64,000 bases of DNA from Antedon mediterranea. Taxonomy: Eukaryota; Echinodermata; Crinoidea; Comatulida; Antedonidae. Positions 49,645 through 64,000 of this stretch are shown piece after piece (positions within the stretch are counted from its first letter, which is position 1; every line of letters begins with the position of its first letter). Location of the stretch: positions 39,511,304-39,575,303 of the forward strand of contig NC_092671.1 of NCBI RefSeq assembly GCF_964355755.1. Direction: 5' to 3'. Made by a program: the position numbers and the translations under genes. The notes below the pieces were generated by a model that was not told the DNA's origin, made no database searches, and worked only from the letters and a program-made list of their open reading frames with translations.

Positions 49645-51070
49645 CTTTAAAAACAATGTATTTTCGATGTGATGGGATTTTTAAGAAGAGATGGCATCTC
49701 ATTATTAATTTTATTATGGGACTACACATACTACCACTTTGTTTGCTTATTTATGATTAGTTAGGGGAGAAGTATTTAATTAGACTCTGGATGTGTGCCT
49801 AACTAACAGAAGCCCATAAATAGCAGCCAGGTCCTCTACTGCTACTTGTGTAGTAGAGACCGGTGTAAGATTTAAATCTGTCCGGTGTTTGAAAGTGTCC
49901 ACTGGACAATTTTCAGCATTGAATATTGTAATACTAGCTGTTGAAAATGGCCGCAACCACCCGGGCAGCTTTCATCGATAAAAAAGTAGGACCATCGAGA
50001 CATCGACATCATATTAACCCCGTAAAAACTAGGGCACTGGACGTTCACCAACTCCCGTTAGGGTAATTATAATTCCTTAGAATACCAACTTGAATCGCAA
50101 AATATCAAGTGGATTGAAATAAATATTACTATTATTATATCTGGAGACATATAGTCTAATCAAATTAAATTGTTTGTTTTTGATTGAGTATATACAACCT
50201 GTTGTCAATTTGAAGTAAATCGACAACTTGAAAAATATATAGCCTACTGTATTATTATTTCGAGGGAATGAATATCACTAAATCATATAGGCATAGGGCC
50301 TACCTATTTCGTTATCTCGAAATATTATTTCATTCGAAATTCGAATTACTACTTCGCGAGAGAACGAAATAATTTCCCTCGAAATTATTTCGTTCTCTCG
50401 ATCATCATCATCATCATCATCATCATTCCTTGTCTCGAAGTAGTAATTCGTTTTTTATATTATTCAGTTCTTGAAATCTTATTTTGTTCTCCCTAAATAT
50501 ATTCGTTCCCTCAAAATATTTTTCAGTTCTCAAAATATTATTTTGTAATATTCATAATACTGCTACTAATTTAATAATATCAACTGATAACAAAAGTTCT
50601 TTAAACAAGTAAGTTCGTCATTGTTAAAGTCAGTTCTTTTTCATTATATTTTTTTCACAGATGCCTGATTTTTGTTTTTATTTAATAAAACATTGAATTG
50701 GTTAGTCACAATATTTGCTTTGTTTCTAGAGACTTTACATTATTTATTTATTTATCTAAAATACATTTGAAAAATATTGTTGATGCATATTACCAAAAAA
50801 TATTTGTTTTTTATATTTTATATGGCAAAATAAACACCTTAATTGCGCATCCTAATTATTCGTTCACTCAAGGGTATTTCGGTTTTTTGTTTTTTTCGAA
50901 TATTAGGGTATTTCGTTCCCAATACAAACAGTCCAATACCGTTATACATCAAATTCATAGAATAATGGCTTATATTGAAATGAAGCGTTTAAAACGTCTT
51001 TGCCACAATGTCTGTACATGCAGCTGAGTTTAAAAAATCGCGGTTGTATTTTTGTTTTATATGGACATAT
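49645..51070. other. Upstream of the recognised NTAQ1 exons
   Basis: Presumed NTAQ1 first intron or promoter side. Contains a palindromic repeat block at 50240-50540. The plus frame at 50698-51027 shows no family signature. Confidence 0.4.
50240..50540. repeat. Palindromic block of tttcgttctctcgaaatt motifs with a (atc)n core
   Basis: gaattactacttcg at about 50343 is inverted as cgaagtagtaattc near 50436. Between and around lie inverted copies of gagagaacgaaataatttc and an atc trinucleotide run (50401-50425). Confidence 0.8.
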
Positions 51071-52046
51071 AAACATAGAAACCACCAGCTAATACCAGAA
51101 ATACCAACAGCTTATGTATCAATTTTTAAAATCAACACCAGCTAATTTAGAACGGTCAGCAGATAATGTAGTAACGAAAATTGCCTCACAGCTAATGTTG
51201 AAAATATTGTATAATTTAAAAACCTGTCTACATCATGTGAAAATGCATTTCTTTACTTACTGGTAGCTATCCATCTATCCGCGTCTCGTAAGTGACCAAC
51301 CAACAACCACTTCTAGTAAGTAACCACCTCTATTGAACGACCACCGTCTCTGATAATCGCCCACCATCTCTTAACGACCACACCACTCGTCAAGGACGAG
51401 CTATTTTAAAGGACCACCACCTCGGCTTCTCATAATCAACCTCATGACGGACTACCTCTCTTAACGACCACGCCTAAAGTGTCGACCTCTCTATAAAAAA
51501 AAACGTCCACCTCTCCACTGGGACCACTTCTCATAATCGACTACCATCCGTAACGACCACCTTTCGCAAATTACCACCTCTATTGAGGTGGTCACTTACG
51601 GGAGGTGTAGTCGGTAAAAGAAGTGGTCGTCTACGAGCGGTGGTAGTTTATGAAAAGCAGTCCCTTATGAGAGGAGGTTACCCCTTCAGGAAGTTGTCCA
51701 TTGTGAGAAGCGGTCCTTTAACAGAGGTAGTCCCTTTTAAATATTAAAGGTGGTCGCTAACAAGGGTAGTTGCTTACGATCAGAGTGCTACGTTTTGAAA
51801 GCCGATCACTTACGAGAGGTGGATAGACTGACAGCTAAACTAAGTAGAGAAATATATTTGCACATGATTTAGACATTTAGGTTTGTAAAATATATAATTA
51901 TTATTTTATTAGCTGGCGATATTAACTACATCAGCTGTGAGGCAATTTTCGTTACTTCATTACCTGTTGAGTTGTATATTAGCTAATGTTGATTTTTATT
52001 TAATAAATAACTGTTGGTGTTTCTACATTAGCTAGTTCTAGGTTTT
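51071..52046. mobile_element. Foldback (TU-like) element
   Basis: Left and right arms of more than 200 bp are inverse copies: for example gtagtaacgaaaattgcctc at about 51167 and its complement gaggcaattttcgttactt at about 51939. The middle is a degenerate minisatellite (cgaccacctctcgtaag) whose orientation flips near 51580. Long inverted repeats built from short tandem repeats define foldback elements, known from sea urchins as TU elements. Confidence 0.85.
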
Positions 52047-52926
52047 ACTACATGGGTGGATTTGACAGTTTCGACGACATTTGCTGCCGTTTTCTACACT
52101 AGCGGTTTTGAACAGGGACTAGTGTAAAGGAAATGCCACAAGTTGTGTTTTTTTTTTTTTTTTATTTATTGTTTTGTGTACTAAAGTGGCAGCATAATCA
52201 GTATTTATTTTTACCAGATGTCCAGCAAGGGTAATGTCCCATAACTCAGGCCACAATTGTCAGGTCAACCTCAAAACAGCGGCTCTCGGGAGATATTAAT
52301 TACCGGTAGTCGTGTTAACTGTCATCTGTTATTTGTCAGGAGAAGGGGTGCGAACTTGCCATATCTCAAATTAAGATTACGCTTACCATGAATATGATTT
52401 CATTACAAGAATTATATACCACAGTATGTTACGTAATTTAATTCTCTTATTTTAAAAAATAACTAAATAAATTAGTATATGATTCTAGTATAAGTATTAT
52501 AAAAAATGTTTCTTTTTAATATACAGGGAGCGGGGGTTGCCTCAAAGCCTGAACGGTTTTAATACGAACTTATGTACTATAATATTATTTTACGTAGATT
52601 ACTATTTAATATTATTTTATTTATTTAACAACATATTTATACAGGATTATACACAATCAAGTAGAAATATACTTGTTTTGCATTGTGGTCCTGTCGACAA
52701 AAACGGATACAAATTTAAATACAATTTCAATTAATATTATAATATAATTTGAGATGAACGTATAATATGTAATAAAGAATAACTATATGATTATATTTTA
52801 TACTCCTATCTGAATGTGCTATTTATTGTGTAATAGAACGACTGAAGCGTTTACCAATAAGAGTATCTTCGAAATTTAATTTAATAAATGGCATTTCCCT
52901 CCAATAGTTTTTTTCTCTCATTTTTT
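52047..52926. other. Non-coding DNA
   Basis: A T-run lies at 52147-52165. The frame at 52537-52734 is AT-rich and unrecognised. Confidence 0.35.
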
Positions 52927-53308
52927 GTGTACTTGCCACTGTAATAAATTACCATTCCCTAACCATGAACATTCTAGAATAAGATGTTTACATTTAAGAC
53001 ATCATGTATAATTAATATAATAACAATCAGGAACATTCCAGTATGCTATTAATAGAAACTGTAATCAAATAGAATAAGAAGTATAAAGAATGATATAGAA
53101 GGATAGGAACATCTTGTATATAAAGGGATGTAAAACTATTGTCATGTTGTTGGATATTAGAGGTTGGATATTAGATTGTAAAAGTTATTGTGAAGCTGTT
53201 GTTTAAAGTGCTTACTGGGTTGTTGAAAGTTGAAGTTGATTGAAATTAAAGATTTGTTTTTGAGTTATTTTACAACTTTGTGGATTTGGTGTGTATACTT
53301 TTATGTCA
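52927..53308 (+). mobile_element. Possible solo LTR
   Basis: It starts with TGTACTTGCC and ends with TTATGTCACA (TG...CA). It holds a TATA-like gtatataaagg near 53117, repeated ttggatattaga, and attaaagatttg near the 3' end: the layout of a Ty3-type LTR. No second LTR, primer site or gag-pol is found, so the limits are tentative. Confidence 0.35.
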
Positions 53309-53594
53309 CAAGGGAGTTTCTAAAGTATTTTCAACCGCTCGGAAACATACGTAAAAGGAGTTCGTGACATCCACTTAAGGCACAAAGTTTAAATTATAGG
53401 CCTACACCTGACAAAACTGTTTGCTCTTTCTTCTAATCGGCAATTGGTTAAAACAAATGTAGCAAGAAGCTGATTGGCTCAATGTTTGTTCAAAACCTCC
53501 TACATTTAAAAAATCATTCACTTTGCTTGCAAAGTTCCAATCACGGTGTTGTTCGTTACAATCTGCCTTCTTTCTATTTTTACTTATTATCATT

Positions 53595-56500
53595 ATGGCC
53601 GATCATGAGTTTGATGCCTTGAGAAACTATCTACAAAACAACGTTTATCCTGTAAATTATTCTGAAATATTAAAACGAAGTTTGCGACGGAAAGCCAAGA
53701 ACTTTACAATTCTTCGTGATATCTTGTATTACAAACAACATTCTGGTAGATTGTTGCGTGTATTGTTACCGAAAGAAAAAAACGAAGTGTTAAACAGTAT
53801 CCATAAGCAGGCACATGGTGGTCACTTGGGTGTCAACAAAACGTAAGTTTAAAGTTTGTCAATTAAATAATATTTAAGCTTCGATAAGTTTCTGGGTGAC
53901 TTTAAAACTGTTTATATGTTTGGCCAGGTGGAATGCCATCCTGAGATGAGTATTAGTAATTAGTACAGCATTGTTTTTAAATGATTTTATACGTAATTTT
54001 ACTTTCTGTGGACCACAGAATTCGAAACAAATGATTAAATGAATGAATTAAATGAATAATAACTAATACTTATCAATTGAAAAATGTATAATGACCGTGT
54101 ACATTATGAAGTTAGTATTTTATATATAGATTCAAACATATTTTTATACCTCCATGAATGAAAAATATGTTAAGTCGATAATAATTTCTACTCAATATAT
54201 TATCGCAATTAATTGTATAAATATATTGAAGTTGAACATAAAATATCACATGTAAAAAATACAAAACATATATTGGCATTCAATAATTAATCAAAAATGT
54301 TCCGAATATGAGCACTGTTTCAATAATTTGACAGATTATTATTATATAATTTACACAGTGCTACACAACGCATATATCTTTAGTTCAAAATTAAGATATC
54401 TCTTTTAATAAAGATAGATTATTTCAATTGAAAACTAAGATGTCTTACTTTTTAAAAGAAATATCTATGTTAATAGATATTTTTTTGTAGGCTTATTACA
54501 CCTCGAAAAACCAAGAAGAATACAGTACAACTAGCTCTATCTATAATAGTAATGTTTTAGTTTTATAACAGTTCATATACGGTACTCTACACGTGCCCAC
54601 TGCATAACTAACACAGAAAAAAATCCACTTGTGATATTCCGAATGGGACAAGAATCTTCCATTCTAAATATCTTGGTAAGTAAGTAATATAGAGATATCC
54701 CTCATGAGAGATATCTTAGTTTTAAATAGTGATACAAATACTTCCCGAATGAAAACTTATTCAGGTCTTGGTATAATAAATATGTTCAATATTAGTTGCT
54801 CACTCATAATGCAAAAAGCCATATCAGTATTAACTTTCGTTCGTTTAAAATGTATACTTATGAAAGAAAACACAATTTGACAAAAAAAAAGGTAAGGAAG
54901 AAGACTTTTATTATGTAACTTTAAAGTGGATTATTACATTTTTTTTTAGGGAATACTTCTTAAAAAAAAACGCATTTTCAATAACAAAACTAGTTTCCAA
55001 TCCCCCGGTAATGGAGTAAAACCACCTGCAGCTTATGTAATGAAAAAAATTAACACCATGTAGAACGATCAACAACGAATGTAGGAACGAAAATTGCATC
55101 CCAGCTAATGTAGGACTATCGCCAGCTAATGTAGAAAATATATATTTTACAAACCTAAATGTCTAAATCATGTGCAAATGCATCTGTTTACTTAGCTATC
55201 CATCTATCCACGTCTCGTAACCGACCAACTTTCTAAAACGACCACACATCGTAAGCAACCAACTCTTTTAAGGGACCGTTTCTCATAATCGACTTCCTCT
55301 CTCGTAACGACAACTTTTTTGGGTGACCACCTCTATTAAACGGCCATCGTCTCTGTTAAGGGATCGCTTCCCATAATCGACCAACTATTGTAAGTGATCA
55401 CATCCTCTCATTATGGACCGCTTCTCATAATCGACCACCTCTCGTAGTAAGCGACCACCTCTCTTAACAACCACAACTCTCGTAAGCGACCGCTTTTTAT
55501 TTTCGACCGCCTCTCGTAAGTGATGATCTCTTTTAGAAGACCACCATATCTCTAAATGGACCGCTTCTCATAATATACCAACTCTTGTATAAATCACCTC
55601 TCTTAAGTGACCACTTCTAATAAACGACCTCTCTGTTAGGAGACCGCTTCTCATAATCGATCACATATCGTAAGCGACCACCTCCCTTATCGACCACATC
55701 TTTCGTAAGTGACCACCTATTTTAAAGGACCACTACCTCTCGCAATCTACCATTGTGGCTCACTAAAAAGTACCCGGTTTCCTTAATAGGGTGTCCTCTA
55801 CATTTTAAAAATAAATAAATTTAACCAGTATGTAGTGTTAAAACGTATATATTTCCCCTTGTTTATTTTAAAAAAAAAGTGGCGATTTTTATATCTACTC
55901 TGTCGCACATTCACCAAGCGTACACAATAATTCTAGTAGGACAATTAATTATTTATACTTTTCAAGTTAGTTTTTTATTGCCTGAGTGAATTATTACCAG
56001 ATTGAGGGCGTAGTTATTTTGTATGGGAGGCTGCACTCAATTTGAAGTTTATATGGGGGTATTTAGAATGTAAACACGGTACAATCAGGGAGATGTAAAT
56101 CTCCCTGGTACAATGTGACACGGAATCATCACGGACTGATGGACATTTTTCATAGAAGGTATCTTTTCCCTTTTCAATATTCATTTATCATTGTCAAATA
56201 AAAAAACTAGAAACATAGATAAATATTAAAAGTTAATTAATCAGTGCTTGCCTTAAACGAAAAGTTAAAATATATGGAACGCCAAACTGTAATGTTATTA
56301 TAATGCATTGATGAGAATGGTGATGTGAACTGCGGTAATAAATAATAAATAATATTAAAAAACAAAATAAAATTAAAATATTTAAAGAATCCATAATACA
56401 GTTTTAAGGTCAATAGTAAACCTACAAAGAGATTGAATATCATCAATACAATAAACACATTTTTTTTTTTTTTTTAACAGTTGGAAAAAGATACGCGAAA

Positions 56501-59415
56501 GGTATTATTGGAAGGGGTCATTTGATGGTGTTCGTAATTTTATAGCCGCCTGTGATCAGTGCCAACGGAAAGAAGTTTTAAAAAAAGCAAAAGTGCCACT
56601 TCAACCTATACCCGTAACAGATACTGCTTTCAGACAGATCGGTATGGATATTGTTGGGCCTTTGGTAAAGACAGAAAATGGTAAGGTATCTCATGACAAA
56701 TTACTGAAAAACAAAAATGCTGTGACTGGATAAAAAAGCTAAATCAAAACGTAAAAGTAAAAAGCAAGAAGACATGAATGAAATACGTTCAGAAAACTTT
56801 GTAATTCATTCTTCAGGGCCTAAAATTACAGTTAATAATTAGTTCTGTTCGGCCTTTATTGTAATAGGGCTGAACTTAAATTTATTATTGTAAAGGCACA
56901 AGCGCAATTTCTGTGAGGTTTCTTGAAATTGTTAACTAAACTAAAATTATGACAGTTCTCTTTTTTACACTGTCAACAAAAACTAGATTTACCAAGAATC
57001 AGATGCTCTTATTATTGTCACCGGATTTACATCGATTATGGCTATACTGTAATAATCTTTATTTCTGCCTGTTTTAATTTGATCCAAACCATGACTGGGG
57101 TAATACTGTTCAGCGCATAGAGGTTTTACAACATTAGGCGCTATGTAAATCCACGATATTATTATTGTTCTTGTTCTTATTATATTTATTGATATTAATA
57201 TTGTTATTATTATTGTTATTTCATTCGTACAGTTCGGGTGTTGTACATCTCATCATGACATTTTGACACTACTATTATTACGGCTTATTATATTATTATT
57301 TGCTGTGTTTCAGGTAATCGGTACTTACTTGTATTTACGGAGTAGGCCTACCTTACCAAATGGGTGGAAGCTGATGCAATTCCAGATAAATCTGCTAAAA
57401 CAGTGCTGAGATCTTTTATTGATTTTGTCTGCAGACATGGAACACCTTCTATATTGATTACAGACCAGGGTAGAGAGTTTTGTAATGAGCTGAATGACAG
57501 CTTCTGTAAGCTGATTGGGGTAGACCACATAGTTGCCTCACCATACCATCCTCAAACAGGCGGGCAAACGGAGCGCTTTAACAGAACACTTTGCACAATG
57601 CTTATGACGTTGACCAACGCAGACCAAAATGACTGGGATATACAACTCCCATACGTGTTGTTTGCCTACAGAACATCCGAGCACAAGTCTACGAAATGTG
57701 ACCCATTCTCATTAGTTTACGGTAGAAAGGCTGTGTTGCCTGTAGAATTACGTATTCCCATCGTTTCGTCTAATAAAGATGACATATCCGGAACTGTTCC
57801 TTTAAAAATAAGAGTGGACGCTTTTTTGAAACTCAAAGATTCAAGGAGAAAGGCATCAGAAAATATCAAAAAAGCACAGAAAAAGCAAAAACATTATCAT
57901 TATGCTGGTGTTAAAAGCAACACGTACTATGCAGGAGATCAAGTGCTCTTGCAGAATTCCAGAAATTTGTCAAGAAAGGGAGGCAAACTTAATGCTCGAT
58001 GGACTGGTCCATATATTATAGAAAAAGTCCTCACTCACAATACATATCGACTAAAAGGAAGAAGGGCTATTGTTAACGGAAACAAGATCAGACATTACAA
58101 GTCCGATAAAACAACCTCTTTGAACTGTCCATCATCAAGCACTAAACAGAAATGTAATACCAATGATAAGCATCTCCCTCCAAAGAAACGAAAGCGAACG
58201 CCAGACATCCCACCTGAAGTAACGCACCATGATAACATACCTACATCCAAGAATGGTGATATCACACCGGATGATCACATTATTAACATACCTACATCCA
58301 AGAATGTTGATGATAACGATAACAGACCTACATCCAAGAATTATGATATCACACCGGATGATCACATTAACATACCTACATCCAAGAACGATGATATCAC
58401 ACTGGATAATCACGATAACATACCTACATTAGACAATGATAATGTCGCACCGGATGATGACCATGACAACAGTAGGCATGTATCTGATAGTGATGTGGTA
58501 TACCTCAACACGAAAACTTCAAGAAAGTTATTCTTTCCTGTCGATGCCAATTGGCAGCTTGAAAAGGCAGCACCATTTGGTATCAATGTCAAAAATTTTC
58601 ACAAAACTCACTTAAAATGTGAAATGGACAAGGCAGCCAGGCCTACTAAAGTTGTTAATATGAGAGGGGACGGCAACTGTCTTTTTAGGGCTTTGAGTTA
58701 TATTCTCTTTGGTGTCCAGAACTACCATGTAGTTGTACGGGATTACATACTAAACTATATGTCCATGAACAAAAACCTATTTGAAAAAATTGAATCCAGA
58801 TCATTTGAACGATACGTGGAAGACACGAGAATGGGGGAATATGGGACATGGGGTTCGGACATCGAAATCATGGCATTTGCGACCATGTCAAATACGAATG
58901 TTTATGTTTACAGTAAATATGGAAGAAGGAAAGGGCTTCCACATTATGAATGGTTGAAATATGCACCAATAAGTAATCAGTTTGGTGATTTAGTATCTGA
59001 AAGAAACATCTACCTATCAAACTTATGTGCACACTTTGAGCCTGTCCTGGATGTAGACAAGAAAACTTATGACGCTGAATTAAAATACACTCGTACACCA
59101 TACGCACCAATCAAAAACCACCTTGCACGGAAATACTGGGATATTGTATCCGATGTGACCCTCAATGCTGCTCTGGTAGATAATTACGAAGATGAAGCGG
59201 TAATGCGTTCCGAAGGCATTATGGACGTTATATACGTATCTGAATTCACGGACACACATTATGACATTGAAGCAGTCAACCATCTAAAAGATGATATCGA
59301 TCCAAATATATTCAATTTGCTTTGTGACATGGAACATTTCCCGGAAAGGATTCATCAGAGCAACAATGAAGTACCTGGACAATTATATGTTGATTCATAC
59401 AACGTCACTCTTTAA
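53595..59415 (+). CDS. Integrase-OTU protease fusion gene (Ginger/GIN type) with one in-frame stop
   Basis: Exons: 53595-53842, 56481-56680 and 57314-59415, phases matching. Exon 1 and the start of exon 2 form the H2C2 zinc finger (HKQAHGGHLG...CDQC). The integrase core follows with all three acidic residues: MDIVGP in exon 2, ITDQGREF and GQTERFNRT in exon 3, the last two exactly 35 residues apart (DD35E). A GPY/F-type module (RWTGPYIIEKV) comes next, then Asn/Asp/Thr-rich repeats (58225-58470), then an OTU cysteine protease domain: RGDGNCLFRAL (Cys codon 58678) and LCAHFEPV (His codon 59032). There is no gag, protease or reverse transcriptase nearby. That points to a Ginger-type DNA transposon or a domesticated GIN relative rather than an LTR element. 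A TAG at 57343-57345 interrupts exon 3; everything else is open for more than 2 kb. TIRs were not found. The downstream frame at 59531-59720 may be a further exon. Confidence 0.78.
53843..56480 (+). other. Intron 1 of the integrase-OTU gene
   Basis: GTAAGT donor and a T-run plus ttaacag acceptor. Contains a one-armed foldback copy at 55015-55755 and inverted agatatct-type repeats near 54380-54720. Confidence 0.65.
55015..55755. mobile_element. Foldback element, one arm only
   Basis: ggaacgaaaattgcatccca, gccagctaatgtagaaaata and ctatccatctatccacgtct match the 51071-52046 element in order, followed by the same gaccacctctcgtaagc minisatellite. No inverted right arm follows. Confidence 0.82.
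56681..57313 (+). other. Intron 2 of the integrase-OTU gene
   Basis: GTAAGG donor, gctgtgtttcag acceptor. Around 57066-57155 is a SINE or LINE tail (gatccaaaccatgactgggg..cattaggcgctatgt) followed by ATT repeats, related to 265-335. Confidence 0.6.
58225..58470 (+). repeat. Coding repeat between integrase and OTU domain
   Basis: About five units of atacctacatccaagaat plus gatatcacaccggatgatc, variable in length but kept in frame. The linker is Asp/Asn/Thr/Pro-rich and likely flexible. Confidence 0.85.
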
Positions 59416-60465
59416 CTGTAGGCCTACCTATGACCGGTAATCTCAACATACACAGAAGCATTAAATGGTGAAAAGGGTATTTGTTTACCTTATAGAGGTA
59501 AGTTTCGTTAATGCTTTGATTTTTTACAGGTGCTTCCGTCAAGAGGAGATTGTCGGCTTTGTCTGAAACTCATCGACGAAGAAATACCAATTGCATTTGT
59601 CGGACCAGAAAGAAGAACATAGATTCACCACAGCGGCTAATTAAAGCGTCACCATCTTTCATTGAATCAACAGAAGACGAATATCTGAGCATAAGTACGT
59701 CAAAGGCTCAAGGGGTCTAATGGCAGGTAACAACAGATCAAATACAGTGTGTCCAGTGTAAACATGCAATGATGTGTCATGCGCCCTGCTTTGATCGCTA
59801 CAAGGATTAAAAAATTAATTAAAAAGCAAATTGTATAAAAGAATAACGCGACTAAAGGTCCGGTAAGGTAAAAGTACGTGAATTAGATTGTAACTAGTGT
59901 TTATTTTTATTGTATTTTTATGTTTAAAAAACTTTTTCATATTTACAACTCATATGATTCTGTTTCATAATGTTATGCAATTTTCTTCTATAATATGTTT
60001 TCTTTGGTCAAAGGGGCACATACAAACGTGCAACCTACCCTCGCTATGATCATCAACCTTGACGTGGTAGCGAGGCTTGCGTGCTTCCAATGTATTGGTA
60101 GCCAGACCAATGATGATCAATAACAAAGTAAAATAAATACAAACACACTTACTGAAACAAGTTTTAATAGCAATAAATAAATAAATAAATAAATATTTTT
60201 CTGTAACTATTGTTCATTATTATTACACTATTATTATTTTATCCTGTTAATATAAGTAATGATCAATGATATATAATTTATGTTTACAAAACTCGTTCAT
60301 ATTTACAACTCATTCTGACAAGACAACAACATTTAATATTTTTGTAATTCACAATTCATACATTTATTTGTAATGTATTCATGAATTTGCTTTTCCTTCA
60401 TCCAATCTACATAGTAGATATATGAAGCTATTGTTCTAACCACGTGACTATGTAGCATAGAACAT
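59416..60465. other. Downstream flank of the integrase-OTU gene
   Basis: Frame 59533-59720 after a ttttttacag acceptor is open for about 62 codons, basic and Ser/Thr-rich, and may be a last or alternative exon. Near 59915 and 60275 is an approximately 45-bp direct repeat (tttatgtttaaaaaactttt). Otherwise AT-rich. Confidence 0.4.
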
Positions 60466-60698
60466 TAATTCTAAACCGCCCGGTAATATACTGAAATTTA
60501 ATTAATTAATTTGAAACGATAAAGATGAGGAAATCTGTGAGAATGAGTTAAAGTCGCCCCAACCGAGACTCGAACTCGGACCGCCTGCTTGATATGCAGA
60601 TGTCCTAACCGTTAGACCACTGGGGCTTTCACGGTATTGTTCGAACTCGATTGGATAGCGACTCTTTAACATTCTCGGCGTGGTACGGCGGAACAGCA
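60466..60698 (-). repeat. tRNA-headed SINE, copy 1, minus strand
   Basis: The tRNA-like part is 60626-60556: acceptor stem GCCCCAG/TTGGGGC, D-arm ggtctaacggtta, anticodon stem TCTGC/GCAGG with loop ATATCAA, T-arm gagttcgagtctcgg. The loop would give anticodon AUC, unusual for a working tRNA. About 60-70 bp beyond each side are shared with copy 2, so a SINE unit. Confidence 0.75.
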
Positions 60699-60737
60699 CT
60701 AGTCCTCAGTTGTAAACACAACAGGCATAGAAATAAA

Positions 60738-61074
<337 letters not shown>

Positions 61075-61140
61075 CAAAGAGCTGCATAGGCAGGATATAT
61101 AAAAAAATCAAGATCAAATAAGTTAAAACTGCCTCAATAT

Positions 61141-61197
61141 AGATTTATTTTAACGACATGTTTCGGGCATAGCCCATCATCAGGTGAAAAGAATTGT
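61141..61197 (-). ncRNA. Hammerhead ribozyme motif in the Penelope-like element
   Basis: On the minus strand: CUGAUGA (61183-61177), stem II GGGC-UAU-GCCC, GAAAC (61164-61160), a minimal stem III (C-AU-G), then GUC with the cleavage site after 61155. Stem I pairs ATTCTTTTCAC with GTTAAAATAAAT (C-G, A-U, four U-A, two more U-A, with mismatches). All core bases are present. Penelope-like elements are known to carry minimal hammerheads of this kind. Confidence 0.75.
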
Positions 61198-61411
61198 AAC
61201 AAAGGATAACATATATAAGTCACAAAATTACATAATAAAACAAATCAACCAATCAAAAATGTTAACAAACAAAAGGCATAGTTATAAAGGCACGCCTCCA
61301 AAAGCTATGGTGTACAAAGCAGGAATGGTTGCTTATAAAGCAGGAAATTTAAAACAAAGACAAAAGCTTCAAGTGTAAATAATAGTTAATATGTGAATGT
61401 CTCTGGCAAAA

Positions 61412-62676
61412 TTAATGTTTAAAGGATCTAAATTGTACATTTATGCCGGTAGGGGCAAGAGTGCCAAGCTTTACAATTATTCTTTCTTCTATAATTCTAC
61501 GAGATGTCTCGGAACCATTACATACTTTAACACCAGAAATAGTAATATCCGAAAGGGAATGCTCATTATTACAAAAATGGGTGGCTACAGGTAATCCGGG
61601 AGTCTTTAGTTTAATAGACCTTAAATGTTCTACAAACCTATCACCTAACCTGCGTTTAGTTTCACCAATATAAAGCATATTACATTTAGTACACGAAATA
61701 CAATAAACTAGATTTCTAGTGGTGCACGTAATACGATCTGTGATCACATAATTACCAGAAGGTCCTACTATTTGGTTTGAACATGAAACGTAATTACATG
61801 TCGAACATCTATTTCTATTACATTTGAATGTTCCAATTGATTCATTACCTTTGTTTTGTAATTTAGATTTAACTAAAGTGTCTTTAATGCTTTGATCACG
61901 TCTGTAAGCTATCATGGGTGGTTCTTGAAAAATATCTTTTGTAGCGGATTTATCTTCAGTCAAAATTGAAAAGTTATCGCGAACAATGTTAATAACCTTC
62001 TTATTCATAGGATGATACGTGAGGACTAGAGGTATGCGGTCACAAGCATTTGTATTATGTGTAGGTTGCAATGTGTCCTCGTGCGTTAACTGGCAAACTT
62101 TTCTTAGAGATTTCACAGTAATGTCAGATGGATATTCGCGTGCATTGAAAAAATCGATCATCTCAGATGCTTTGATGTTAAAGTCATCATCATCGCTACA
62201 TAAACGTCGAAGTCTAACAAGTTGCGAATACGGTATAGCATTCTTACAAGCTGGAGGATGCGAAGAGTTGTAATTTAGATAAGTGTGCGCGTCAGTATCT
62301 TTGTAGTGGACGGATGTAGAAAGACCAGGTTTATCAATAGATAAACTAATATCAAGGAAAGGCACACACTTGTCAGAAATTTCATGAGTAAACTTTATAG
62401 CAGGATGAAAATTGTTCACAAAGTTAATGAACTCATTAAGTTCATCTAAAGTTCCCGACATAACACCAACACAATCATCAATATACCGTTTGAATAAATC
62501 TGGTTTCTTTCCCTTATAATCTCGTAACACATTCTGCTCAAAATACCCCATAAAGAGGCAAGCAAAGTTAGGTCCCATTTTTGTACCCATGCTTATCCCA
62601 GAAACTTGCCGAAAAAACTTTCCATTGAAGTTGAAGGCTGTAGTATTAAGTACAAGTTCAGCGAGACGTAGTATTG

Positions 62677-62680
<4 letters not shown>
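61412..62680 (-). CDS. Penelope-like polyprotein fragment (reverse transcriptase C-terminal half plus GIY-YIG endonuclease)
   Basis: About 422 codons open from the (TA)n edge to a stop at 61412. RT motifs: FRQVSGISMGTKMGPNFACL, then the catalytic YIDD at 62485-62474. Downstream, a Cys cluster (CNRNRCSTC) precedes the GIY-YIG nuclease: LVYCISCTKCNMLYIGET, then RLGDRFVEHLRSI and a C-terminal glutamate-rich helix (RRIIEERII). RT makes DNA from element RNA and GIY-YIG nicks the target; this pairing is specific to Penelope-like elements. Earlier RT motifs, including the first catalytic Asp region, are lost, so this copy cannot be autonomous. The frame has no stops, which suggests a fairly recent insertion. 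Ile-Tyr runs before residue 62680 are translation of the microsatellite. Confidence 0.85.

Positions 62681-62739
<59 letters not shown>
62681..62739. repeat. (TA)n microsatellite
   Basis: About 29 TA units at the truncated 5' side of the Penelope-like element. Confidence 0.97.
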
Positions 62740-62742
<3 letters not shown>

Positions 62743-62759
62743 TTCCATATATATGTTCT

Positions 62760-62947
62760 ATAGTTCAGTAACAAGTGTACATTATTGTAAATATAACAAA
62801 TACATATATATATATATATATATATATACAGACAGTAACAAGTGTACATTATTGTAAATATAACAAATACATATATATTATATATATATATATATGTATA
62901 TGTATTTGTTATATTTACAATAATGTACACTTGTTACTGAACTATGG
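62760..62947. repeat. Palindrome with a duplicated arm around (TA)n
   Basis: cagtaacaagtgtacattat with ttgtaaatataacaaatac occurs directly at about 62766 and 62832 and inverted at about 62898-62941, with TA runs between. A hairpin of about 45-bp stem is possible with either left arm. Confidence 0.9.
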
Positions 62948-62974
62948 AGAATTTTTTTTTTCCGAAATAAAAGA

Positions 62975-63200
62975 AGAATGAATGAATGAATTTATTTTCA
63001 ATCTTTCTACATAACAACAAATATATAGTATAACAGGGGAGTAGCGGAAAAGCAAAAGTAAAGTAAATTTGAACCAGCCAAACATGTATGAAACATTATC
63101 CAGTAAGCACATTTTATAAGAAGCTTTTGTTTATTAAAATGGGTTTCTCTGAAATTCCAGAAGTTTATTAAACATTGAAAATAACACAATCGCCTTTAAA
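62975..63200 (-). mobile_element. Possible LINE 3' tail, minus strand
   Basis: On the minus strand the sequence ends in aaataaattcattcattcat, an ATTC-type tail seen at many L2/CR1-like 3' ends. No coding region remains. Confidence 0.3.
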
Positions 63201-63678
63201 CAAAATGCTGTTCAAAAAAAGAATCGGTTGAAGCAAGCGTTCTTATAACATCCGATAAAATGAAGGTTCAATAAAGTAGCCCTATTAACAAATGTATGAG
63301 GTCTCAGGCCTATCCCATATTAATTATTTGTATAGATACATTAATTTTAAGATTCCAGATACCGAATTGTTGTTTTTTTACATAACAAGTCATTTTTTCT
63401 TTGAATATAAATTCTGATTTAAGGACAAAATACTAAAATAAATACTTACACCAAAGGTGCATAAAAACGTGTTGATGTGGCGCTATATCGATGTCATTAT
63501 CTTTGCATTCACCCTAGACGCACATAGTGTGACACCCCTACCATATTCTCGATGTGACGATCAATGTACCAATTAACATAATACTTCAGTAAAACTGATT
63601 ATGTTTTTTCAAGAGATCAGCTATATCGTGTTGATTATAAAAAGGTGCAACTTTTAATTGATTGGGGATTAAACAAGT
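63201..63678. other. Non-coding DNA
   Basis: No gene or repeat that I can support. Confidence 0.3.
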
Positions 63679-64000
63679 AAACTATTTATTCTTCTTGTCT
63701 TTACTCGTACAAAATAATATAACGGTCGCTAATTGGAAGTGTTTAAACTAAAGTGATCTATAATTGGAAGAGGACCCGTACAATTACTTGTTTTTTATCA
63801 CATGATTATAAACTATTTATTCTTCTTGTCTTAACTAGTATTTATTCTTCTTGTCTTTATTCATACAAAATAATATAACGGTCGCTAAATGGAAGTGTCT
63901 TAAAGTAAAGTGACCTTTAATTGGAAGAGGACCAGTACAATTACTTATTTTTTATCACATGATTAAAATCTATTTATTCTTCTTGTCTGTACTCATACAA
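63679..64000. repeat. ~130-160-bp tandem repeat running off the window
   Basis: tatttattcttcttgtcttt, acaaaataatataacggtcg, attggaagaggacc and tttttatcacatgatta recur at about 63684, 63840 and 63970. The second unit has an extra ttattcttcttgtcttaac. The array continues past the right edge. Confidence 0.88.

What the first reader, a model, noticed from the sequence alone, without database searches (positions are those of the whole stretch)
53595..59415. Integrase fused to an OTU deubiquitinase-type protease, in an intron-containing gene
Seen: H2C2 finger, complete DD35E core, GPY/F module and an OTU domain with its catalytic Cys and His motifs in one three-exon gene with no gag or RT. Known: Ginger-type DNA transposons and GIN genes carry gypsy-like integrases, and some Ginger elements have extra protease domains. 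Inference: the OTU protease may protect the integrase from ubiquitin-dependent turnover, or the gene is domesticated. The in-frame repeat linker separates the two activities.
Basis: partly seen in the sequence, partly recalled or inferred. Interest (0 to 1): 0.75.

Follow-up and report, generated by a model that had tools for sequence, protein, structure and literature searches.

The report
Ginger1 DNA transposon with OTU protease
The gene is the transposase of a recently active 17-kb Ginger1 jumping gene, a kind already described in 2010, and the copy in this window is broken by a small insertion that makes a stop codon.

Summary
In detail: an integrase (zinc finger, DD35E, GPY/F) joined to an OTU protease domain in one three-exon gene at 53595-59415. 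It is not a host gene or a new fusion. It is the transposase of a Ginger1 DNA transposon running from 49864 to 67107 (3.1 kb past the window), with TGTAA ends, ~66-bp imperfect inverted repeats and CCGG on both sides. Ginger1 transposases with a C-terminal OTU domain, introns, CCGG/CCGT duplications and TGTNR ends were described by Bao et al. 2010 (PMC2836005; passages). At least 25 copies lie in this 354-Mb genome. 12 of 13 fully covered sisters encode an intact 847-aa protein; the 13 differ by at most 0.31%. The window copy is defective: TA became TAGGCCTA, an in-frame TAG inside the integrase. Notable here: the length (17.2 kb against 2.6-7 kb published), an OTU-truncated form at six loci (four read in DNA), and past purifying selection on OTU relatives. 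In passing, TAGGCCTA occurs 128,596 times in this genome against 1,587 for the reversed word.

The parts
49860..49863 (.). CCGG target-site duplication, left copy (right copy just outside the 3' end, beyond the window)
   Evidence: left-end tally over 23 copies
49864..49929 (+). left terminal inverted repeat, TGTAAGATT...; 53 of 67 alignment columns identical to the reverse complement of the right end
49864..64000 (+). part of the Ginger1 element inside the window; the element continues to 67107 in window coordinates (17,244 bp in all; L029 3107)
53595..53842 (+). exon 1: YP...F...YY stretch (read by eye) and first half of the H2C2 zinc finger
53843..56480 (+). intron 1 (GT-AG), with a dispersed repeat and CTCTCGTAAGCGACC-like minisatellite sequence
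56481..56680 (+). exon 2: second half of the zinc finger; first catalytic Asp (codon 56647-56649)
56681..57313 (+). intron 2 (GT-AG); the C10 copy carries about 4.8 kb extra here
57314..59415 (+). exon 3: rest of the integrase core (Asp 57463-57465, Glu 57571-57573), GPY/F stretch, linker, OTU domain, stop
57343..57350 (+). TAGGCCTA where 18 of 18 covered fetched sisters have TA; gives an in-frame TAG (57343-57345) in the window copy
58231..58458 (+). in-frame repeats in the linker (48-bp and 87-bp periods); a basic PPKKRKR stretch lies just upstream
58678..58680 (+). OTU catalytic Cys codon (MRGDGNCLF)
   Evidence: aligned with OTUD5 and others; relatives
59032..59034 (+). OTU presumed catalytic His codon (CAHFEPV), assigned by eye
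   Evidence: relatives
60455..60969 (-). two tRNA-like units (ARAGORN tRNA-Asp, anticodon atc, 60555-60626 and 60826-60897); a dispersed genomic repeat carried by the element
61073..62795 (-). nested RT / GIY-YIG-like insertion between AT repeats (ORF 61412-62764), limits approximate; not part of the transposon proper
63678..64000 (+). start of a tandem array (steps near 132 bp) that runs on to about 66839 outside the window

Best explanation
This is one defective copy of a recently active Ginger1 cut-and-paste DNA transposon. Shown here: element ends, target duplications, copy number, intact sister genes, and the stop codon in this copy. Inferred from the family: the 847-aa protein binds the inverted ends, cuts and joins DNA with its DD35E core, and inserts at CCGG or CCGT with a 4-bp stagger. 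Inferred for the OTU domain: it acts as a deubiquitinase carried by the transposase to the transposition site, removing ubiquitin either from the transposase itself (about 45%) or from chromatin or repair proteins at the break (about 40%, close to the idea of Bao et al. 2010); polyprotein cleavage or no activity share the rest. The window copy, with its stop codon, was most likely moved in trans by protein from intact copies.
For: CCGG on both sides and TGTAA ends. Both sides seen in three more copies: C3 CCGT/CCGT and C5 CCGG/CCGG, C10 CCGG/CCGG. Left sites: 21 of 23 CCGG, 1 CCGT, 1 TGCC. 25 loci including the window match 53595-55000 over at least 1,405 of 1,406 bases (capped at 40 scored places); 40 scored loci carry the 5' end, 25 of them at 99-100% (78 candidates). 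Intact coding sequence in 12 of 13 fully covered sisters, mean pairwise divergence of the 13 0.12%, highest 0.31%. Domains. OTU Cys and His positions read as C and H in 8 of 8 loci looked at, though alternative overlapping alignments give another letter in some, and the Asp is missing in L039. OTU part against three of seven more distant relatives: pS 0.76-0.80, pN 0.24-0.35. Window and C10 copies share the stop, the nested RT insertion and nine base states seen in no other fetched copy, but have different left flanks and their own CCGG pairs, so the broken form seems to have moved after it was broken.
Against: No RNA or protein data: introns and the fusion are read from sequence. The length is more than twice the published range. 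One left flank is TGCC, and two loci (L033, L062) share the same 20-bp flank. Six loci carry an OTU-truncated form that spread, so OTU is not needed in cis. Against the 97%-identical copy dN/dS is 0.30 for OTU, 0.39 for the linker and 0.58 for the integrase part, on few changes; the integrase part of the broken relative L046 gives 0.80. The OTU relatives compared carry stops now, so the selection signal is of past lineages. Among near-identical copies coding parts are no clearer of changes than introns. The single-sequence fold of the OTU part failed (pLDDT 28.8). Gene conversion between the window and C10 copies is a possible alternative to movement in trans.
Confidence: 0.93

Rival explanations
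1. A domesticated host gene derived from a Ginger1 or Gypsy integrase, like GIN1 or Imagin.
For: Multi-exon integrase gene without its own gag or RT, as in Imagin (passages of PMC12863088).
Against: 25 dispersed near-identical loci, inverted ends and 4-bp duplications, and a stop codon in this copy.
Confidence: 0.02
2. Remnant of a Gypsy LTR retrotransposon that lost gag and RT.
For: The integrase resembles Ty3 and retroviral integrases; integrase matches at 31-38% identity, many in long open frames, occur elsewhere in the genome and look like Gypsy pol (type inferred, not tested).
Against: Inverted terminal repeats; CCGG/CCGT duplications; OTU C-terminus as in published Ginger1; no other ORF of 150 aa or more in the element except the nested RT ORF and one AT-repeat frame.
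Confidence: 0.02
3. OTU is dispensable cargo: the integrase alone does the job and OTU is decaying.
For: Six loci give the same OTU-truncated match with the integrase frame open, four read in DNA, with six different left flanks.
Against: 13 loci besides the window and C10 keep an open exon 3 through the OTU end (65 scored places). OTU relatives show pS near saturation with pN 0.24-0.35. Truncated copies may use protein from intact copies.
Confidence: 0.15
4. Polinton/Maverick or another virus-like large element, given the 17-kb length.
For: Length, and an integrase plus a cysteine protease.
Against: No other ORF of 150 aa or more in the window part of the element except the nested RT ORF and one AT-repeat frame, and none of 100 aa or more in the remaining 3.1 kb; 4-bp CCGG duplication; H2C2 finger present, which Polinton integrases lack according to Bao et al.. 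No search for polymerase B or capsid profiles was run.
Confidence: 0.01

Closest known systems
Ginger1 DNA transposons with OTU domain (e.g. Ginger1-1_HM, Ginger1-1_AC in Table 1 of Bao et al. 2010, PMC2836005; abstract and passages seen)
   Same: TGTNR ends, 4-bp CCGG or CCGT duplications, inverted ends within 40-270 bp, H2C2, DDE, GPY/F, C-terminal OTU, introns (two here, as in the Aplysia element)
   Different: 17.2 kb (about 1.7 kb of it the nested RT insertion) against about 2.6-7 kb in that survey; carries tRNA-like repeats and a tandem array; this copy has a premature stop
Imagin and GIN1 host genes (PMC12863088, passages; Bao et al. 2010)
   Same: integrase genes derived from Ginger1
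   Different: those are host genes, Imagin single-copy and without DDE residues; this one is multi-copy and mobile, with DDE and OTU
OTU-bearing Helitrons/Helentrons (passages of PMC2836005 and PMC6431247)
   Same: a mobile element that carries an OTU-type cysteine protease
   Different: Rep/helicase rolling-circle proteins, not a DDE integrase (from the papers' text)

Membership tests
Ginger1 | 4-bp target duplication, CCGG or CCGT/ACGG | tested here: met
   Both sides seen in 4 copies, all matching; left side 22 of 23 CCGG/CCGT, 1 TGCC
Ginger1 | termini TGTNR | tested here: met
   TGTAA in 23 of 23 left ends; right end reads TGTAA in reverse complement in 4 of 4
Ginger1 | terminal inverted repeats of about 40-270 bp | tested here: met
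   53 of 67 alignment columns identical, window copy only
Ginger1 | H2C2 finger and DDE integrase core | tested here: met
   Pfam above cut-off in a sister protein; DD35E spacing; window copy interrupted by TAG
Ginger1 | GPY/F motif | tested here: met
   RWTGPYII at residue 376 by eye; the region aligns to the Ty3 integrase C-terminus; Pfam SH3_Tf2-1 below cut-off
Ginger1 | YPYY motif upstream of the finger | tested here: inconclusive
   VYP...F...YY present by eye; no alignment to published Ginger1 made
Ginger1 | C-terminal OTU or Ulp1 domain | tested here: met
   OTU E 1.4e-10; OTUD5, OTUD3 and OTUD1 among 5 PDB sequence matches
Ginger1 | length about 2.6-7 kb (descriptive, not defining) | tested here: not met
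   17,244 bp
Ginger1 | integrase clusters with Ginger1 in a tree | not tested
   no Ginger1 reference proteins on hand
Gypsy LTR retrotransposon | direct LTRs, gag and RT in the same element | tested here: not met
   inverted ends; no such ORF by the ORF list apart from the nested RT insertion, absent in 10 of 12 copies seen; no profile search for gag
Domesticated Ginger1 gene (GIN1, Imagin) | single or few copies, element ends lost | tested here: not met

The most novel reading that the evidence does not exclude
The stop codon in this copy is a freshly caught example of a genome-wide process that turns TA into TAGGCCTA. The word occurs 128,596 times in 354 Mb (reversed control 1,587), and one is seen here to be present in two element copies and absent from 18 near-identical sisters. 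It could be the excision mark of a TA-targeting transposon with GG...CC ends, or an unrecognised short-insertion process.
Probability: 0.35. Interest if true: 0.7.

Novelty: new member of a known kind. Interest (0 to 1): 0.33.

Why it matters
It gives a young, multi-copy Ginger1-OTU family with intact genes and natural OTU-truncated relatives in one genome, which makes the question raised in 2010, what the protease does for transposition, testable. The stop codon in this copy led to a 128,596-copy palindromic word whose origin is not explained.

Tried and rejected
Rejected: domesticated gene, Gypsy LTR remnant, Polinton (see rivals). Alternative splicing around the in-frame TAG was considered by eye: the in-frame combination that I saw skips the NRYLLVFTE stretch of the core, so it was not adopted; no systematic splice search was made. 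The OTU fold from a single sequence failed (pLDDT 28.8), so no fold search was run. A scan of viral contigs with the exon-3 protein confirmed no relative (6 stretches matched a pattern). Literature for the word: 0 papers for TAGGCCTA, 3 unrelated titles for TAGGCC/GGCCTA (listing and start of abstracts only), 5 off-topic titles in a wider search (likewise). Corrected dN/dS failed for distant relatives because synonymous sites were saturated, so raw pS and pN are given. Genome-wide counts of another palindrome (TACTAGTA) and of the tandem form TAGGCCTAGGCCTA could not be obtained. The host species was not identified.

Full report
What was checked. The coding sequence starts at 53595 and stops at 59415, with introns 53843-56480 and 56681-57313, both GT-AG. 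A sister copy's unaltered 847-aa protein passes Pfam cut-offs for the H2C2 integrase finger, the rve core and OTU. On the window's own pieces OTU and the exon-2 half of H2C2 pass; the exon-1 half of H2C2 and rve stay below their cut-offs. The exon-3 integrase part matches Ty3, foamy-virus and other integrases in the PDB (26 sequences). The OTU part matches 5 PDB sequences: OTUD5 twice (best E 4.4e-10), OTUD3, OTUD1, and a chain named RNA-dependent RNA polymerase at E 4.3e-5. DD35E spacing holds, and OTU D600, C603 and H721 are found by motif. The Cys is inside the PDB alignments; the His is not, and rests on the motif and its recurrence in relatives.

The window copy is broken. The frame meets TAG at 57343-57345, between the first and second catalytic Asp. 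It comes from TAGGCCTA where 18 of 18 fetched sisters that cover the site have only TA (17 GTAC, 1 GTAT). Of the 20 fetched copies two did not cover it: L022 is deleted there, and L009 ended before it. The C10 copy, of which L009 is a part, does carry the insertion.

The element. Comparison with 20 of the 24 sister loci shows homology far outside the finding. Six of six upstream pieces from sisters begin to match at the same base (49860, the first base of the CCGG). The element is TGTAAGATT...AATCTTACA, 49864-67107, 17,244 bp, CCGG on both sides, inverted ends with 53 of 67 alignment columns identical. The right end was read in three more copies: C3 with CCGT on both sides, C5 with CCGG on both sides, C10 with CCGG on both sides. 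Over 23 left ends: 21 CCGG, 1 CCGT, 1 TGCC; 22 different 20-bp flanks, two loci (L033, L062) sharing one. Two of the 25 loci (C1:27268442, C5:21219863) were not in that tally.

Copies. 25 loci including the window match 53595-55000 over at least 1,405 of 1,406 bases: 22 at 100%, then 99, 97 and 94% (40 of 867 candidates were scored, so this is a lower bound). Of 13 fetched sisters covering all exons, 12 have the intact 847-aa frame and one (L010) a frameshift; 7 of the 20 fetched copies did not cover all exons. The 13 differ by 0.12% on average, 0.31% at most. Whole-genome protein search finds 13 loci besides the window and C10 with exon 3 open to the end (65 of 1,032 candidates scored). The first 200 bp of the element are found at 40 scored loci (78 candidates), 25 at 99-100% and 15 at 96-97%. 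Six loci have exon 3 cut at the same OTU point. In the four that I fetched (L025-L028) bases 58796-59320 are gone, the frame ends soon after, the Cys codon is kept and the His codon lost. The six have six different left flanks. Copies L018 and L022 have other deletions.

Selection on OTU. Against OTU relatives at 61, 58 and 48% amino-acid identity, synonymous sites are near saturation (pS 0.76, 0.80, 0.78) and replacement sites are not (pN 0.24, 0.26, 0.35) (three of seven OTU relatives, best alignment only, stops left out). Those relatives now carry stops, so the signal is of the lineages before they died. Against the 97%-identical copy dN/dS is 0.30 for OTU, 0.39 for the linker and 0.58 for the integrase part, on few changes; the broken relative L046 gives 0.80 for its integrase part and 0.39 for its linker. 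Among near-identical copies the share of segregating sites is 0.46% in OTU (4 of 863), 0.75% in the exon-3 integrase part (6 of 798), 0.92% in the linker (4 of 435), 1.21% in exon 1 (3 of 248), 0.50% in exon 2 (1 of 200), 0.76% in intron 1 (20 of 2,637) and 0.32% in intron 2 (2 of 633): no clear constraint at that short range.

The nested RT. An ORF on the minus strand at 61412-62764 has weak RVT_1 and GIY-YIG matches, both below Pfam cut-offs. I call it Penelope-like from recall. It sits between AT repeats and is absent from L018, L022 and L025-L028 and from four more copies whose two sides adjoin (a capped list), that is 10 of 12 copies seen. The window and C10 copies have it. They also share the TAG and nine base states found in no other fetched copy, yet have different left flanks and separate CCGG pairs. 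The broken form therefore seems to have moved after it was broken, which I read as movement in trans; gene conversion is an alternative.

Comparison with what is known. Bao et al. 2010 (PMC2836005; abstract and passages, not the whole text) define Ginger1 by these ends, duplications and domains, note introns, list OTU as C-terminal domain in 7 of 16 rows of their Table 1 (my count), and suggest that OTU or Ulp1 may act through DNA repair. PMC6431247 and PMC12863088 were seen as passages only. The finding is thus a new family of a known kind. Its length is outside the 2010 range; about 1.7 kb of it is the nested insertion. I did not have Repbase and cannot say that it is the longest, or that this family is unlisted.

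Mechanism. Shown: ends, duplications, spread, intact frames, OTU catalytic positions recurring in relatives. Inferred: DDE-type strand transfer at CCGG/CCGT, and deubiquitinase action of OTU on the transposase or at the break. The basic stretch PPKKRKR at residue 436 would serve as a nuclear signal (motif type recalled).

The side finding. TAGGCCTA occurs 16 times in the window against 0.42 (sd 0.64) in 100 shuffles, none reaching 16, at scattered sites, and 128,596 times in the genome against 1,587 for the reversed word. The reversed word holds a CpG, so that control may be low for another reason; scaling the window's shuffle mean to 354 Mb would give roughly 2,300, still some 50-fold less. 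In the window plus 6.9 kb beyond the element it was the one TA-N4-TA word (of those with at least four copies) with more than 10-fold excess (19 against 0.54); with other spacings several words exceed 10-fold, some probably from tandem arrays. In four stretches near the start of contig C1, chosen because dense, it also occurs as TAGGCCTAGGCCTA, in surroundings rich in CTAG, CCTAGG and similar words. That speaks for a broader simple-sequence process and against a clean transposon mark. Two other sites in the element (53397 and 59419) were the same in the older copies looked at (3 of 3 and 1 of 1). One such event was found in the list of indels among fetched copies up to 60960. No paper with the whole word was found in the held library.

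Noticed in passing
window 57343-57350 and 15 other sites; genome-wide: TAGGCCTA is about 34-fold in excess in the window and occurs 128,596 times in the genome (reversed word, which holds a CpG, 1,587); one TA-to-TAGGCCTA event is seen between element copies. Origin unexplained.
   Followed up: partly
window 61073-62795: Nested RT / GIY-YIG-like element between AT repeats, present in 2 of 12 element copies seen; many other near-identical copies in the genome.
   Followed up: partly
window 60455-60969: Two tRNA-like units (tRNA-Asp, anticodon atc by ARAGORN) in the 3' part of the element; the same unit is dispersed in the genome, and at 8 places outside this element family lies within about 3 kb of a copy of the nested RT element.
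   Followed up: partly
window 63678 to L029 2839: About 3.2 kb tandem array with steps near 132 bp; copies seem to differ in its length.
   Followed up: no
C10 copy, L009/L051: About 4.8 kb of extra DNA in intron 2 of the sister copy that shares the stop codon.
   Followed up: no
L033 and L062: Two element copies with different internal deletions share the same 20-bp left flank: the same site used twice, a repeat, or a duplication.
   Followed up: no
L061 (C4:15967400-15967700): The one left end of 23 without CCGG or CCGT (TGCC).
   Followed up: no
window 51260-51850 and 55200-55750: Degenerate CTCTCGTAAGCGACCAC-like repeats in the 5' part and in intron 1, partly in inverted orientation.
   Followed up: no
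L039-L046: Broken relatives of the OTU or integrase part elsewhere in the genome, about 40-69% identical at protein level.
   Followed up: partly
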